Below, one piece after another: positions 36,386 through 45,300 of a DNA stretch of 64,000 bases (its first letter is position 1; each line of letters begins with the position of its first letter). The stretch covers positions 27,051,746-27,115,745 of the forward strand of contig OY979717.1 of assembly GCA_963855995.1 (NCBI GenBank), read 5' to 3'. This stretch comes from Muricea muricata (taxonomy: Eukaryota > Cnidaria > Anthozoa > Malacalcyonacea > Plexauridae). Below the pieces are notes generated by a model, which saw only the letters and a program-made list of their open reading frames with translations, had not been told where the DNA came from and did not search any database. The position numbers were made by a program, and so were the translations under genes.

Positions 36386-39300
36386 GTAACAAACATGATG
36401 CATGTCATCAATTTTCTTAAATGTTTTATTTTATTCCTGTATGCGAGGCGGAATTAATTTGCTTAGGAACGAACTTGTATGTGCATAAGCTATGATTAAT
36501 CACCAGGATTTCTCATTTATACTTGTAAATAAATGAACCTACAGTGTTAATGTCATACGTTGTATTATTGCATGGTATGTCCAATAATGTCCCTGAAAAT
36601 CACAAGGTGCGGAGTTACAAAACTCTACATAAGAAGTTATACTGTGATTTCAAATGATCTTTGCAATTCAGCAAGGATAATGCGTGCTGAACAAATCTTC
36701 AAAAAACGAGAACAAGAAATACTGACAGTTCTTTACATAGAAAAACAAATTAGCAGCGTCAATTAAGAACCAAAAACAGTTAGCTAGCCGAAGCAAGTTT
36801 AAATGCTACTAAACTATTGTGTCCTCAACTTTGAACCTCACCTGAGGGTGTTATGCAAGAGTGAAGAAACAAGTTTAAAATAAGAGTTCGAAACAAGTTT
36901 ATCGTGGAACAACCTTGAATATTTTAGATATTGCTTGACGATGTCACTCCAACGGTCGAAGCTCACAAAGATGAAATACGCTTATCTAATACTTTTTGTG
37001 CGATTGCAGTTTTACAAATTATTTCTGTTCTCCCTATTAGTACAAGACCTGCATGCAATGACTTTTTGTTCCACTGTATCTGACAAATTATTTATCTTAG
37101 GGTATAAGAACTATTCATTGCAAAACATTACTAATGCCGGGGAAACAAATGGTTTGCTCCTGACGCTCAATGTCCAGTTGAGAGATTATCGACCAGATAC
37201 AGAAAGTATTGGTTTCAAAGTCCTAATTCATGATCAAGATGAGCCGATATTTATCAACGAAGGTGGTTTTGCAGTCATGCCTGGAAGAAAAGCGTTAGTT
37301 TCAGTCACAAAAGCACAGGTTTGCCCTATAAGCATAATATATATATATATATATATATATATATATATATATATATATATATATATATATATATATATAT
37401 ATATATATATATATATATATATATATATAGCACAAGATGAGAAACACAAGTTACTTCATCGAAATTTTATTTACTACAGGACTGTTTCGTATTACAAGTG
37501 TTGAACTTGCCACACTCATCAGGCAAATGATATAATATTACAACAGCGCAACGGAATATATGTACAAGGGATGCATAATTAAATGATTCAATCATGTTAC
37601 ATGTCCTGGTGAGAGTGTTATCGTAGTAGAAATTTCTTCCGGTGCCGGCATGTGGATATGAGTTCGTTACGTTTGTTGAGAGAGCTTAGTTCCGGGTGGC
37701 ATATGATGATAAATTTTTCGGACATACATATCATAAGTTACACCGTTTGGTTTTATTAGAGTATGGTTGTGATTTTTTAATGATTTTCCAGTTAATGGTA
37801 TACGAGGTGTTGGAGTCTATATATATATATATATATATATATATATATATATATATATATATATATATATATATATATATATAAATTTACATATATATAT
37901 AAATTTAACCAATAAACACAACGAGCCGTAATTTAAACCCTTATATAATCCTTCATGTAAATATATCTTAGTCATTAGAACATTTTGTTTGAAGAGTACC
38001 ACACGGTATTAACGTGTGGCACGAAACTAACTAGTAACAAAAATGTTTATTCACAACTGTTGACTCCCTGTTTATTTTATATTATATTATGCTCTGGATT
38101 TCCATTGAGCACTTTGCCAACGGTATTTACAACATGTTATGCATTATATATATCATAGACAACATCATTGTCATCTGACAAACAAGTATTTGACGATGCA
38201 GTACAAACATATCAAAACGCACTAGGACATAGCAACTTCAGCCACAAGCTGGAATACATGCCACATGTAACACAGCAACCACGCAGGAACAGGCAACGCA
38301 ACATCATTTGGTTTAACCCTCCATTTAGCAAAAATGTCAAGACAAACATCGCACGCAGTTTCCTCAAGCTTGTAGACACGCACTTTCCAATAGGCAACAA
38401 GTTACACAAAATTTTTAAGAGGAACACAGTTAAGGTCAGTTACAGCTGCATGAGTAACGTTAAGTCAATTATCACAAGTCACAACACACGCATAATTAGG
38501 AAAAGCCAACCACAAGACATTAGCACAGAGAACTGTAACTGTAGGAACAAGCACGCATGCCCATTGCAGAAAAAGTGCATGAGTAAGGACATTGTATACA
38601 AAGCAACAATTAGCACAGGCAACATACAGGACACAAAGCACTACATTGGCATGACCTCAAACACATTCAAAGAGCGATACAGGAATCATATCAAATCTTT
38701 CACACACAAAAAATATTCGAACGAGACGGAACTTTCGAAACACGTTTGGCACTTAAAGCAAAAGAAAACAGATTTCACCATAAAATGGTCCATAATAAAA
38801 AAGTCTATTTCTTACACGGGAGGATCCAAAAGATGTAATTTATGTTTGGAGGAAAAAATTAGTATTTTGAAAGAAAAAAACAATTGCTTGCTTAACAAAA
38901 GATCGGAAATAGTTTCGGTCTGCCAACACAAAAGCAGATTTCAGGTAAACAACCTAAACAAAGAAAGGAATGCATGCTATTCAACCACCCACGCGCCACG
39001 TTTCCGCCTTGAGCATAAAAGAAGCTCGCACATTTTCGAAATTTGTCTACCACCTGAAGATTCCCTTTGGATGAAACAGACTGTAGTGGTAAGTTTTTGA
39101 GGTATTTTACACAATTATACATTTCGCTCTGTCTATATGTCATTGAGCACTCTTTTGTATTTCGCTAACCAAAACTAGCACATTATATATATATATATAT
39201 ATATATATATATATATATATATATATATATATATATATATATATATATATATATATATATATATATATATATATATATATATATATATATTTGTTTTCAA

Positions 39301-42300: not shown

Positions 42301-45300
42301 AGATTTAGAAACCACGCCAAATCACTCGCTAACAAGAAGTACTCAAAGGAAACGGAGCTATCAAAGCATGTATGGGAACTGAAGGCAGCGAAAAAGCCAT
42401 TCACTATCAAATGGTCGTTGCTTAAGAAGGTTCCTGCCTACAAAGCTGGTTCCAGAAGATGTAACTTATGCCTTGAGGAAAAACTGACCATCATGAAGAA
42501 CAAAGATAATACCTTACTGAACAAACGAACCGACTATTTACCAAGTGTAGACATGTAACGCGATACCTAGTATCAAACTGTAAATAGAGAGTAGCTTCAC
42601 CAGATCTGTCAGTTGCCTGACGATCGCTTTATAGCGTGAAACTCGGAGTAGCACAGCAGGTCTACGAAATAAATAAATATATTCGCTCTACCAGTAATGG
42701 TATTGAGCGCTCTAAAATCATTGACAAGTCTCGTAACCAATCTGGTACAGTTAATTCTTGGGATATATATATATATATATATATATATATATATATATAT
42801 ATATATATATATATATATATATATATATATATATATATATATATATATACACGTTATTGCCAAACGAAAGTTTATTTGCGATATGATAGCGTATAGTAAA
42901 AACACCTACTATCATTATGATTATTTATGATCATTTCGCATGCAAAAAAATATCGCAATCATCAATCATCAACATTAAACAATCATCAATCATAGCTTCT
43001 TGATATCTTATATTGGTAGTTTATACAATAAACAGAAAGCGCATGAGTGCTTGGAAAGAGCAGATTTATTTCTCGTCATGAACATTGATATCTCTAATAT
43101 GATATCATGTTCAACAATCGAAACAAATCTAGTGTTTCCAAGCACCCATGTACTATTCTCTATTTAACATCAGGTGAAAACGCCCCAACCACCTTACGGA
43201 CAGGCATGTGTAGAAGGAAGGAGCCACTATTCCAAGACACTTTGCATGAGTACCTGTAAGGAGGAATATATCATCCAAAATTGCAAATGTCAGAGGCCAC
43301 CAAAAAGAAGTAAGTATAAAACTACAAAGAGTCGAAAAAAGTACAAAAGCTATACAAGTCACTCAAATATGACTCTAACGAAGTTTCCTCAGTGTGTCCT
43401 AAAAACACTGCGACCCACGATACTAGTTTTATAAGACATTTATGCCGTACGTATTCAAAATGAGCATTGCTATTCATTAAAACTTACGAACATCAAAACA
43501 AAGTTGTGGGAAGATCTTTACGATGTTGATATTTGATGTTAGTCACATGACTGAAAATATATGGCGCTGTCCATATTTCAGGCGGACCACGCGATTAGTT
43601 TTAAAAATATGATAACACGATAAGACGTCGTTTTTAACTTAATTGGAAGTGGAAACGACATTCTTTAATCAAAAAAAGCATAGGTAACAACAAGAGAATG
43701 TTTTAGTTAGAAAATAAAAAAAACTTGGTGTCATAGTTTTTTCAAAGAATACGTGGAACGGCGGAAAAGAGGGATTCTGGACTTCTAAAATGGATAAGAA
43801 TGGGGGGTATTAGGCGTGAGGCGAAATGTTCGGTTTGCAACCCAAGCAAAATTAAAGAAAATCATGTAAGAAAGTTGAAATTTGACAGAATTTGGTAATT
43901 TTGCCGGGTATGAAAAACATTAATCTGCCGTTTGAGCAAACCAGTTCGACTACCGGTCGATGGCCGCGAAGTGAATAGTGCAAACCTGTTTGCAAAACTT
44001 CGCAAAATGACAGTTTTGGCCTAAAATTTGCTCACGCGTAAACGGGTCTGCAAACCGGTTATTTGCGCCAGATTTGCCTCGCGGGTAAACATGTACGCAA
44101 ACCTAAATTTTGCAACACGATTGCCGTTTTGGTAAATTCACATGCAAACGTTTAGTTTGCAAATTGGTTTTCGTTACGGTTAAAGTCGTACGCAAACCAA
44201 CAACTGGTTTGCTGTACGCTAGCCTCATTAATAAACTCTACGCAAACTTAGTGTTTGTAATAGGGTTTGCCCACGGTTACGCGATCGCGCATTCTAACTT
44301 TTCGCTATAAATTTAAATGAAGGACGAACTTGTACGCAAAGATAAGGGTAATAAATTTCAAGGCTTGCGACCACACTGTTCAGACTTGTATGCTACCATT
44401 ATAACCATGTGCAATGAAACAATACACGGTATTCATAGACAAAAACTGCTATGCAAACAGCTATACGTGGCCTAATCTCTAGGCGATGCAGATCAAAAAG
44501 CGTTTTCTGCGTTTGATAATCACCCTTCACAACTTTGTCATAGTTTGCTCTCTCGTCCGGAAACCTGGTCAAGGGGGACCAGCAAACTCCAGGTATTTAA
44601 AAAATCCCCTGAACCCTAGTAAGTTTTGTGCACAGGTTTTACTAACTTCCAAGGGAAGACTCGAAAGGTCAACGTTCCTGTATTTTTTAGGTTATTTCAA
44701 TGATACCAGCAGTACCTGTTTTTTGATGTTACAGATGTGTAGCCAACCAAACGGGCAAAAATTTAGAAAATATAATGCAAATAGGACAGCATGAATCGTG
44801 GTCAAATATAAAACTAAAAGATCAGAGACGAAAAACCTGTTTATTTACATAATATTACAATTTGCGATAATTATATTAAATAAACGTGTATATTAAACCA
44901 TCGCAAAGATTAACACAGATTAAATAACACAGTAGTAAAGACCTCAACAAAAATATGAAGAACGCCTAGGAAGGCTTAGTTTTAAGGCCTGATTTAGACA
45001 TTAAATTTCTGTAGCGTCGAATGCAATCAGTAGCGAAGCCAGCTCGACAATTTGGTCATGCTATGCAAATATAAATCATTATCATTATTCATTTCTTTAG
45101 AAATAGATCCTTATACGGTCTACAAACACTGAAAATTTGCATTTGCATGATTAAATGTCGGGCTGGCTTCGCCACTGAATGCAATTCAAACAATAGAGAA
45201 TCGAGACAAATCATCTCATAATCTATTGTTTTAATTGCGCTTTTCTAAGCTTCTGGATACGATACAATATGCAAAATTGTGCAAAATGCACTCTTTGCTG

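What the first reader, a model, noticed from the sequence alone, without database searches (positions are those of the whole stretch)
37469..42663. Cluster of hammerhead-ribozyme-like motifs within a PLE nest in one intron
At least six motifs fold by hand to the type I hammerhead plan: A (37469-37528 minus), D (37979-38047 plus), E (39048-39091 plus), C (39414-39452 plus, with a mirror copy on the minus strand), B (39683-39744 minus) and B' (42602-42663 plus). All end with a GUA triplet and have a stem III of three to four pairs. A, B, B' and E lie next to, or overlap, the end of a PLE reading frame and are near an (AT)n tract. PLE-borne hammerheads are established knowledge; the density here and the intronic location in a channel gene are the unusual part.
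Basis: partly seen in the sequence, partly recalled or inferred. Interest (0 to 1): 0.85.

Follow-up and report, generated by a model that had tools for sequence, protein, structure and literature searches.

The report
Penelope retroelement ribozymes nested in intron
A cluster of small self-cleaving-RNA motifs in an intron of a sodium-channel-like gene is real, but it is a pile-up of a well-known kind of mobile element (Penelope-like retroelements) that carry such ribozymes at their ends, and similar pile-ups occur elsewhere in this genome.

Summary
The motifs are real. A descriptor scan finds exactly the six reported places in 64 kb (0.10 expected per shuffled window). A covariance model built only from hammerheads of other families in the same genome finds all six plus the mirror of C at E = 5e-9 to 5e-6; the next match is 0.34. 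Rfam's models find none. They are minimal type I hammerheads at the 3' ends of Penelope-like elements (PLEs) that piled into (AT)n tracts; the nest spans 94% of a 5,855-bp intron, while the tandem paralogue's intron is 168 bp. B and B' are the two arms of one inverted insertion. D and C carry C3-to-U; 19 of 20 other D copies fetched keep C3. The density is not exceptional: 3,574 core matches genome-wide against 440 in a reversed control, and three places among the first 100 matches are as dense. The more informative finding lies beside the ribozymes: insertions form head-to-head pairs in which one arm, not both, carries a 'tail' (45 of 48 scored pairs), and the tail opens with a conserved hairpin (1,466 pattern matches against 2 in control). 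That fits reverse transcription primed on both target strands. No cleavage was tested.

The parts
35761..36385 (+). upstream exon of a DEG/ENaC (ASC) channel gene; open frame, exon start and donor inferred
   Evidence: Pfam ASC 1.4e-30 on 35761-36390
37081..37318 (+). channel exon just before the nest; start inferred from the paralogue match
   Evidence: Pfam ASC 1.9e-12 on 37022-37318; 87.7% identical to paralogue 14904-15164
37319..43173 (+). intron of 5,855 bp that holds the nest; paralogous intron 15142-15309 is 168 bp
   Evidence: GT/AG sites and paralogue alignment
37337..37429 (.). (AT)n tract at the outer end of arm A
   Evidence: TRF
37430..37818 (-). arm A of an A-family PLE, no-tail end to the left
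   Evidence: genome copies mostly 95-98% identical; ends at CTTGTGCTAT(AT)n
37469..37528 (-). hammerhead A, core intact (CUGAUGA), cleavage predicted after 37475; stem II has a GG/UA break that 38 of the 39 listed family matches lack (the odd one is this copy; matches not deduplicated)
37905..38150 (+). 3' end of a D-family element, with tail
   Evidence: 46 genome matches listed
37983..38042 (+). hammerhead D, C3 mutated to U in this copy (C3 kept in 19 of 20 other copies fetched), cleavage site after 38036
38091..38114 (+). tail hairpin of D
38169..39183 (+). 5'-truncated E-family PLE: C-terminal part of the frame (38159-39097), hammerhead and tail
39048..39091 (+). hammerhead E, core intact (CUGAAGA), U-U at 10.1/11.1, overlaps the end of the frame, cleavage site after 39085
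39126..39152 (+). tail hairpin of E
39184..39290 (.). (TA)n tract
   Evidence: TRF
39291..39371 (-). left arm of C pair, no tail
   Evidence: inverted repeat; genome pairs
39310..39360 (-). mirror copy of hammerhead C, U3
   Evidence: CM 3.5e-6
39397..39548 (+). right arm of C pair, with tail
39412..39454 (+). hammerhead C, U3, cleavage site after 39448
39492..39517 (+). tail hairpin of C (degenerate outer pair)
39549..39663 (.). (TA)n tract
   Evidence: TRF gives 39549-39677
39664..41476 (-). left arm of B-family PLE insertion, no tail; frame 39759-41264
   Evidence: inverted repeats I1-I3; ORF
39683..39744 (-). hammerhead B, core intact (CUGACGA), U-U at 10.1/11.1, cleavage site after 39696
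41473..42762 (+). right arm of the same insertion, 5'-truncated, with tail
42602..42663 (+). hammerhead B', core intact, cleavage site after 42650
42685..42712 (+). tail hairpin of B' (GCUC..GAGC with UU bulge and inner helix)
   Evidence: fold of 42683-42711 z = -4.2
42763..42849 (.). (AT)n tract at the outer end of arm B'
   Evidence: TRF
43174..43308 (+). channel exon just after the nest
   Evidence: Pfam ASC 2.1e-5

Best explanation
The six motifs are minimal type I hammerhead ribozymes that belong to about five insertions of Penelope-like retroelements (families A, D, E, the C pair and the B pair). Each PLE RNA carries the hammerhead near its 3' end, followed by a short AU-rich stretch and then a 'tail' that opens with a conserved hairpin. 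Insertions go into (AT)n tracts. The likely pathway (inferred): the GIY-YIG endonuclease cuts both strands of an AT-rich target; reverse transcription starts on one strand at the end of the tail and on the other strand just before the tail hairpin; the two antisense cDNAs, usually cut short at different points, join head to head. This leaves an inverted pair with a hammerhead at each outer end and (AT)n on both sides, ready for the next insertion, so nests grow. Shown here: the motifs, their family membership, the inverted pairs, the one-tail rule, the hairpin and the (AT)n flanks. Also seen: no-tail arms of scored pairs run past the predicted cleavage site (one B arm stops 4 nt short of it; A arms were found by a string beyond that site), so those templates had not been cleaved there. 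Inferred: ribozyme activity (probably dimer- or protein-assisted, as reported for relatives), and the two-strand priming order.
For: Descriptor scan 6 vs 0.10. Alignment of 18 hammerheads of other families: 93.2% of cells paired, 49 cells with changes on both sides vs 13.0 in shuffles, covariation 0.714 vs 0.201; the model from it finds all seven places. Genome copies of every family: A 40, B' 43, C 53, D 46, E 41 listed matches, lower bounds. PLE frames end beside B, B' and E; the A-family frame in L061 is 44% identical over 477 aligned positions to the B frame; L054, a related frame, has Pfam GIY-YIG 6.4e-6. One tail per outward inverted pair: D 10 of 10 and C 17 of 18, A 8 of 9, B 10 of 11 resolved. 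Arms truncated at clearly different template points in 13 of 16 direct B junctions. Distinct tail ends abut (AT)n in 10 of 10 A and 15 of 18 B cases, background in the window 1.3%. Same-family neighbours within 10 kb: 22 outward, 1 inward, 5 same strand, among the first 100 listed hammerhead cores. The Anolis PLE protein cuts and extends both strands of AT-rich DNA and starts internally at two adjacent sites (PMC11167929, parts 1-2 of 4).
Against: Rfam's hammerhead models find nothing. RNAfold does not give the full hammerhead as the minimum-free-energy fold of any of the five folded (A, D, E, C, B'); in A, E and B' the core CUG pairs with the stem III strand; z-scores are -0.66, -2.04, -0.35, +0.85 and -2.44. 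No Pfam RT match and only a sub-threshold GIY-YIG match (0.13) on the window frames; no match at all on the A-family frame; the structure model was unusable (pLDDT 35). In the Anolis study no strand difference in RT start site was seen, so the one-tail rule is not explained by it. 3 of 48 pairs break the rule. In 3 of 16 B junctions and most short C pairs the two arms stop at nearly the same template position, as self-priming would give. No reading frame was seen beside D or C.
Confidence: 0.91

Rival explanations
1. The ribozymes act on the host: intronic hammerheads that cut the channel pre-mRNA, like the conserved amniote intronic ones.
For: The intron would be transcribed with the gene, and E and B' lie in sense orientation with intact cores. 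Intronic type I hammerheads with a presumed role in mRNA biogenesis exist (PMC6155905, passages).
Against: The copies are dispersed genome-wide; the paralogous intron has no nest; D and C have a mutated core; B' faces its complement B; A and B are antisense to the gene.
Confidence: 0.03
2. The motifs, or those of D and C, belong to non-autonomous retrozymes (small tandem repeats with type I hammerheads) rather than PLEs.
For: Canonical hammerheads that pass Rfam's cut-off exist in this genome (50 of 55 matches at E<=0.001, from 74 scored candidates); a canonical-looking hammerhead, not tested against Rfam, lies 195 bp from a B-family copy (L025).
Against: No 200-400-bp tandem unit in the window's nest; PLE frames end beside B, B', E and, in L061, A; E copies stand in tandem at 2.4 kb. 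D and C have no frame beside them in what I read, so this stays open for those two families, though both share the tail hairpin.
Confidence: 0.06
3. Inverted pairs arise by self-priming (fold-back) on an antisense template, as proposed for rotifer Penelope, not by priming on both target strands.
For: Head-to-head pairs with palindromic junctions were read that way in PMC3846280 (passages); most short C pairs and 3 of 16 B junctions are near-palindromic.
Against: 13 of 16 direct B junctions join arms that stop at template positions 42-1,431 nt apart; fold-back alone would not give one arm a tail and the other none in 45 of 48.
Confidence: 0.2
4. The motifs are chance look-alikes.
For: Rfam finds nothing.
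Against: Shuffle control and independent CM.
Confidence: 0.01

Closest known systems
Minimal type I hammerheads of Penelope-like elements (Cervera and de la Pena 2014; Lunse, Weinberg and Breaker 2017; both recalled and seen only as citations, not held)
   Same: Type I topology, conserved core, weak helix III, in the pseudo-LTRs of PLEs, thousands per animal genome (PMC7761336 and PMC7229834, passages)
   Different: Described as usually lacking the non-conserved part of helix III; here helix III is a 9-10-nt hairpin of 3-4 pairs. U-U at 10.1/11.1 in 61 of the first 100 listed core matches
Poseidon PLE of Anolis (PAc)
   Same: Hammerhead at the pLTR, tail between two RT start sites, AT-rich targets, both strands cut and extended (PMC11167929, parts 1-2 of 4)
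   Different: Here the two kinds of end sort to the two arms of each inverted pair, and the tail opens with a GCUC..UUGAGC hairpin, whereas RT there starts in an AC-rich stem loop
Penelope of Adineta vaga
   Same: Inverted head-to-head pLTRs with the optional tail on one of them (PMC3846280, passages)
   Different: There the tail is 31 bp in the example described and copies are few; here it is about 60-95 bp and 48 pairs could be scored
Hammerheads with a U10.1-U11.1 mismatch
   Same: Same non-canonical first pair of stem II, reported as tolerated (PMC3088659, one passage)
   Different: Here it is the commonest state among the matches examined (61 of 100) and is kept in all 6 B-type rows while the rest of stem II changes
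Non-LTR retrozymes of corals and other metazoans
   Same: Type I hammerheads in cnidarian genomes (PMC7229834, part 1 of 6 and passages)
   Different: Retrozymes are ~170-400-nt non-coding units, often in tandem, with canonical hammerheads

Membership tests
Type I hammerhead ribozyme | Core CUGANGA ... GAA with A15.1-U16.1 and H17 | tested here: met
   A, B, B', E met; D, C and the mirror of C have U3
Type I hammerhead ribozyme | Three helices with stem I open, supported by compensating changes | tested here: met
   18 other-family hammerheads: covariation 0.714 vs 0.201 in shuffles, slid controls 0.07-0.21; CM hits in window. Two pairs of stem III never vary and say nothing
Type I hammerhead ribozyme | Match to Rfam hammerhead models | tested here: not met
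   other loci in this genome pass RF00163. Curators' cut-off, not a defining feature of the fold
Type I hammerhead ribozyme | Self-cleavage 3' of GUA | not testable with these tools
   needs transcription and cleavage mapping
Penelope-like element | RT domain of PLE type | tested here: inconclusive
   No Pfam RT match; motifs such as FDIAEFYPS and GLYRDDG are read by eye and recalled
Penelope-like element | GIY-YIG endonuclease | tested here: inconclusive
   Window frame 0.13, below cut-off; related frame L054 6.4e-6, above cut-off, aligned to the window frame at 9e-9 outside that domain
Penelope-like element | Direct/inverted repeat architecture with optional tail | tested here: met
   45 of 48 scored outward pairs with one tail; 2.4-kb tandems of E
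Retrozyme | Short tandem non-coding unit of 170-400 bp | tested here: not met
   repeats found in the nest are inverted arms and (AT)n
Host-domesticated intronic hammerhead | Conservation at one orthologous intron | tested here: inconclusive
   absent from the tandem paralogue; no other species available

The most novel reading that the evidence does not exclude
The tail hairpin (GCUC-inner helix-UU bulge-GAGC-RCUC) is the PLE's reverse-transcription start element, and each new insertion is one coordinated two-strand event: one target strand is primed without homology at the far end of the tail, the other by AT microhomology just before the hairpin. One-tail inverted pairs, and hence ribozymes at both ends, would be the normal product of PLE integration, not a by-product.
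Probability: 0.35. Interest if true: 0.6.

Novelty: new member of a known kind. Interest (0 to 1): 0.33.

Why it matters
The cluster adds no new ribozyme class, but it shows how such clusters can form: PLEs insert into (AT)n, leave (AT)n on both sides, and bring a hammerhead at each end. The one-tail rule and the hairpin give a concrete, countable signature that can separate self-priming from two-strand priming, an open point in PLE biology, and this genome offers over a thousand tail hairpins for it. That arms extend past the cleavage site, and that both arms of C carry U3, agrees with the report that cleavage is not needed for insertion in vitro (PMC11167929).

Tried and rejected
Rfam search at gathering and at E<=10: no hammerhead; the 21 weak matches were mostly (AT)n and palindrome artefacts such as mir-297 and mir-8499. 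Naming the PLE domains by Pfam, NCBIfam and PDB sequences: no convincing match on the window frames. AlphaFold2 from a two-row alignment: pLDDT 35, not used. RNAfold as a test of the hammerhead fold: monomers misfold, which counts against easy monomer cleavage but does not decide. A further hammerhead at 54409-54461: weak (E 0.66 in the window; 0.011 in a small stretch), treated as a decayed copy.

Rejected ideas: that U-U at 10.1/11.1 is new (already in PMC3088659); that the one-tail pair is new as such (PMC3846280); that E pairs with two tails break the rule (the two looked at, L101 and L102, appear to run on past a tail into further sequence shared between them, so I read those as internal repeats and not ends). 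E was not scored: its listing held full-length matches only; a third two-tail E pair (C1:85082351/85084819) was not looked at. Searches for PLE hammerheads, the tail hairpin or inverted pairs in print: (one search listed 12 of 45) listed no paper that, judged from titles, counts and abstract starts, describes this hairpin; most subscription papers are not held, so absence is not shown. The two key papers on PLE hammerheads are not held; one search used a wrongly recalled DOI.

Counts and what was dropped: B: 30 loci, of which 9 show no inverted partner inside the locus, L035 and L038 are one pair, 9 pairs have a partner whose outer end lies outside the locus and were dropped, 11 scored (10 with one tail). 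A: 29 arms, 2 not classed, 9 pairs. C and D: neighbours within 10 kb among the listed matches only; 3 inward D neighbours were not counted as pairs. The searches score the best 40 candidates each, so the samples lean towards well-preserved copies. Family counts are not deduplicated (loci overlap). In one search only the first 100 of 3,574 matches were examined, and the first 100 of 1,466. In one search the inner-helix positions pair in 50 of 63 against a shuffled mean of 38.8, but the best of 5,000 shuffles also reached 50, and the outer stem is fixed by the pattern. In one search the 3 B tail ends without (AT)n are L020, L027 and L037.
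Full report
What was checked. The finding names six hammerhead-like motifs between 37469 and 42663. I wrote a descriptor for the type I plan (core [CU]UGANGA, stem II of at least 3 pairs with one mismatch allowed, GAAA, a stem III hairpin of 3-6 pairs, U16.1, H17, at least 3 pairs of stem I) and scanned both strands of the 64-kb window. It returned exactly the six reported places and nothing else; 200 dinucleotide shuffles of the window gave 0.10 matches on average, 0.02 with C3 intact. 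Rfam release 15 reports no hammerhead at gathering threshold in the window, nor at E<=10 in 36400-43180. Rfam's type I model does ring elsewhere in the same genome (55 matches at E<=0.001 from 74 scored candidates), so the window motifs are of a minimal kind that this model misses.

Independent model. Loci fetched around other copies held hammerheads of other sequence types. I aligned 18 of them, leaving out families A to E. Of 177 cells, 93.2% pair; 49 cells have changes on both sides against 13.0 in shuffles; sliding the partners by 1-3 columns drops pairing to 25-48%. All 6 B-type rows have U-U at the first pair of stem II; the other 12 have G-C. A covariance model from this alignment finds A, B, B', E, C, the mirror of C and D at E = 5e-9 to 5e-6; the next match is 0.34.

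What the motifs are attached to. Frames 39759-41264 (minus) and 38159-39097 (plus) are 52% identical where they align and end beside B and E; a broken mirror copy of the first lies within 41473-42558. Family A has its own frame in L061, 44% identical to the B frame over 477 aligned positions, ending about 146 bp before the predicted cleavage site. Domain libraries do not recognise the window frames above cut-off, nor the L061 frame at all; a related frame in L054 has a GIY-YIG domain at 6.4e-6 and aligns with the window frame at 9e-9 outside that domain. I call them Penelope-like elements on this, on motifs recalled, and on the repeat architecture below. No frame was seen beside D or C.

Genome context. 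The window lies in a 453-Mb assembly, contig C2:27051746-27115745. Its mitochondrial contig has cox1 with nad1 downstream on one strand, with a gap in which rns would be expected but was not searched for, and cox2, atp8 and atp6 on the other (names other than COX1 read by eye). I recall this order as that of octocorals, so an octocoral is the likely source, untested. The C3-intact core pattern occurs 3,574 times against 440 for the reversed pattern. Among the first 100 matches (6.6 Mb of C1), three separate places have at least four cores within 5,195 bp, and one has six. The window has four by that rule. Tail hairpins cluster as well: 19 neighbours within 5 kb against 3.3 expected, in the first 100 listed. 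The nest is thus not exceptional for this genome, and >6000 type I hammerheads have been reported in a stony coral (PMC7229834, passages).

The intron. Flanking exons match the ASC family. The intron runs from 37319 to 43173 (5,855 bp); in the tandem paralogue the matching intron is 15142-15309 (168 bp). The stretch of PLE arms and (AT)n from 37337 to 42849 spans 94% of it. If transcribed with the gene, D, E, C and B' are in sense; D and C have U3, and B' can pair with B over the arm. D's U3 is shared by 2 of 21 copies, this one included; 19 of the 20 others keep C3. For C both arms have U3, so the template RNA probably already had it and still inserted.

Inverted pairs. Copies stand as minus-left, plus-right pairs with their 3' ends outward: among the first 100 listed hammerhead cores, same-family neighbours within 10 kb are 22 outward, 1 inward and 5 same strand. 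Two kinds of 3' end exist in families A, B, C and D: a short end in an AU-rich stretch past the hammerhead, and a longer end with a tail. In outward pairs one arm has each: D 10 of 10, C 17 of 18, A 8 of 9, B 10 of 11 resolved (window, others); together 45 of 48, the window's own B and C pairs among them. Exceptions are L055 and L035/L038 (two tails) and C2:11743188/11745294 (none). In A and B the tail ends at a fixed base and abuts (AT)n in 10 of 10 A and 15 of 18 B distinct ends against 1.3% background in the window. In 16 direct B junctions the two arms stop at template points that differ by 42-1,431 nt in 13 and by 7-11 nt in 3. The short C pairs mostly stop at nearly equal points. Apart from one B arm (L011, which stops 4 nt short), the scored no-tail ends lie beyond the predicted cleavage site, so those templates were uncleaved there; for A this is partly built in, since its arms were found by a string beyond that site.

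The tail hairpin. All five families open the tail with GCUC(U)-inner helix-(A)UU-GAGC-RCUY (C slightly degenerate; A seen in genome copies only, as the window's A arm has no tail). The pattern occurs 1,466 times in the genome and twice in the reversed control. The B' tail hairpin folds with z = -4.2. Inner-helix positions pair in 50 of 63 cases over 21 types, above the shuffled mean of 38.8, but 50 was also the shuffle maximum, so this support is moderate.

Mechanism. The Anolis PLE protein cuts and extends both strands of AT-rich DNA and starts reverse transcription internally at two adjacent sites that bound the tail; its hammerhead cleaved only with protein present, and hammerhead mutants did not affect insertion in vitro (PMC11167929, parts 1 and 2 of 4 read). 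It saw no difference in start site between the strands. Rotifer Penelope has head-to-head pLTRs with an optional tail on one, explained there by self-priming (PMC3846280, passages). The data here fit two-strand priming better for most B pairs, with a fold-back-like minority and the short C pairs. That is inference from end points, not a demonstration. Ribozyme activity is likewise inferred: cores of A, B, B' and E are intact, but helix III is short and RNAfold prefers a core-stem III mispairing in A, E and B', which agrees with the report that such hammerheads may work as dimers (PMC7761336, passage).

Verdict. The side result on one-tail inverted pairs and the tail hairpin deserves a genome-wide count. 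On re-checking, confidence in the best explanation was set from 0.92 to 0.91 and in the retrozyme rival from 0.05 to 0.06, because no frame was seen beside D and C.

Noticed in passing
window 54409-54461 (+), with PLE fragments 53781-54366: Two short PLE frame pieces in head-to-head orientation, followed by a decayed hammerhead (E 0.66 in the window search, core CUGAUGA kept, stem III with an extra base).
   Followed up: partly
window 15541-15585 (+): A decayed E-type tail hairpin (GCCCU..AUCGAGC) downstream of the paralogue's exon, so the tandem paralogue has probably had its own PLE insertion nearby.
   Followed up: partly
window 6547-7451 and 7825-8291: Two minisatellites of 50-bp (18 copies) and 29-bp (16 copies) units; they leave long overlapping frames open on the minus strand, which look like repeat artefacts and not genes.
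   Followed up: no
window 58818-63035 (-): Frames that look by eye like a BEL/Pao-type LTR retrotransposon, with interrupted frames.
   Followed up: no
L001-L008: Canonical type I hammerheads over Rfam's cut-off, one group in close inverted and direct copies about 380 and 240 bp apart (L001), which look like retrozymes.
   Followed up: no
family C matches listed: Short C pairs mostly stop at nearly the same template position, inside the 5' part of the hammerhead; RT stalling at the fold or a defined RNA 5' end could explain it.
   Followed up: no
window 43042-43150: Imperfect palindrome of about 110 bp in the same intron, outside the nest, of MITE-like look.
   Followed up: no
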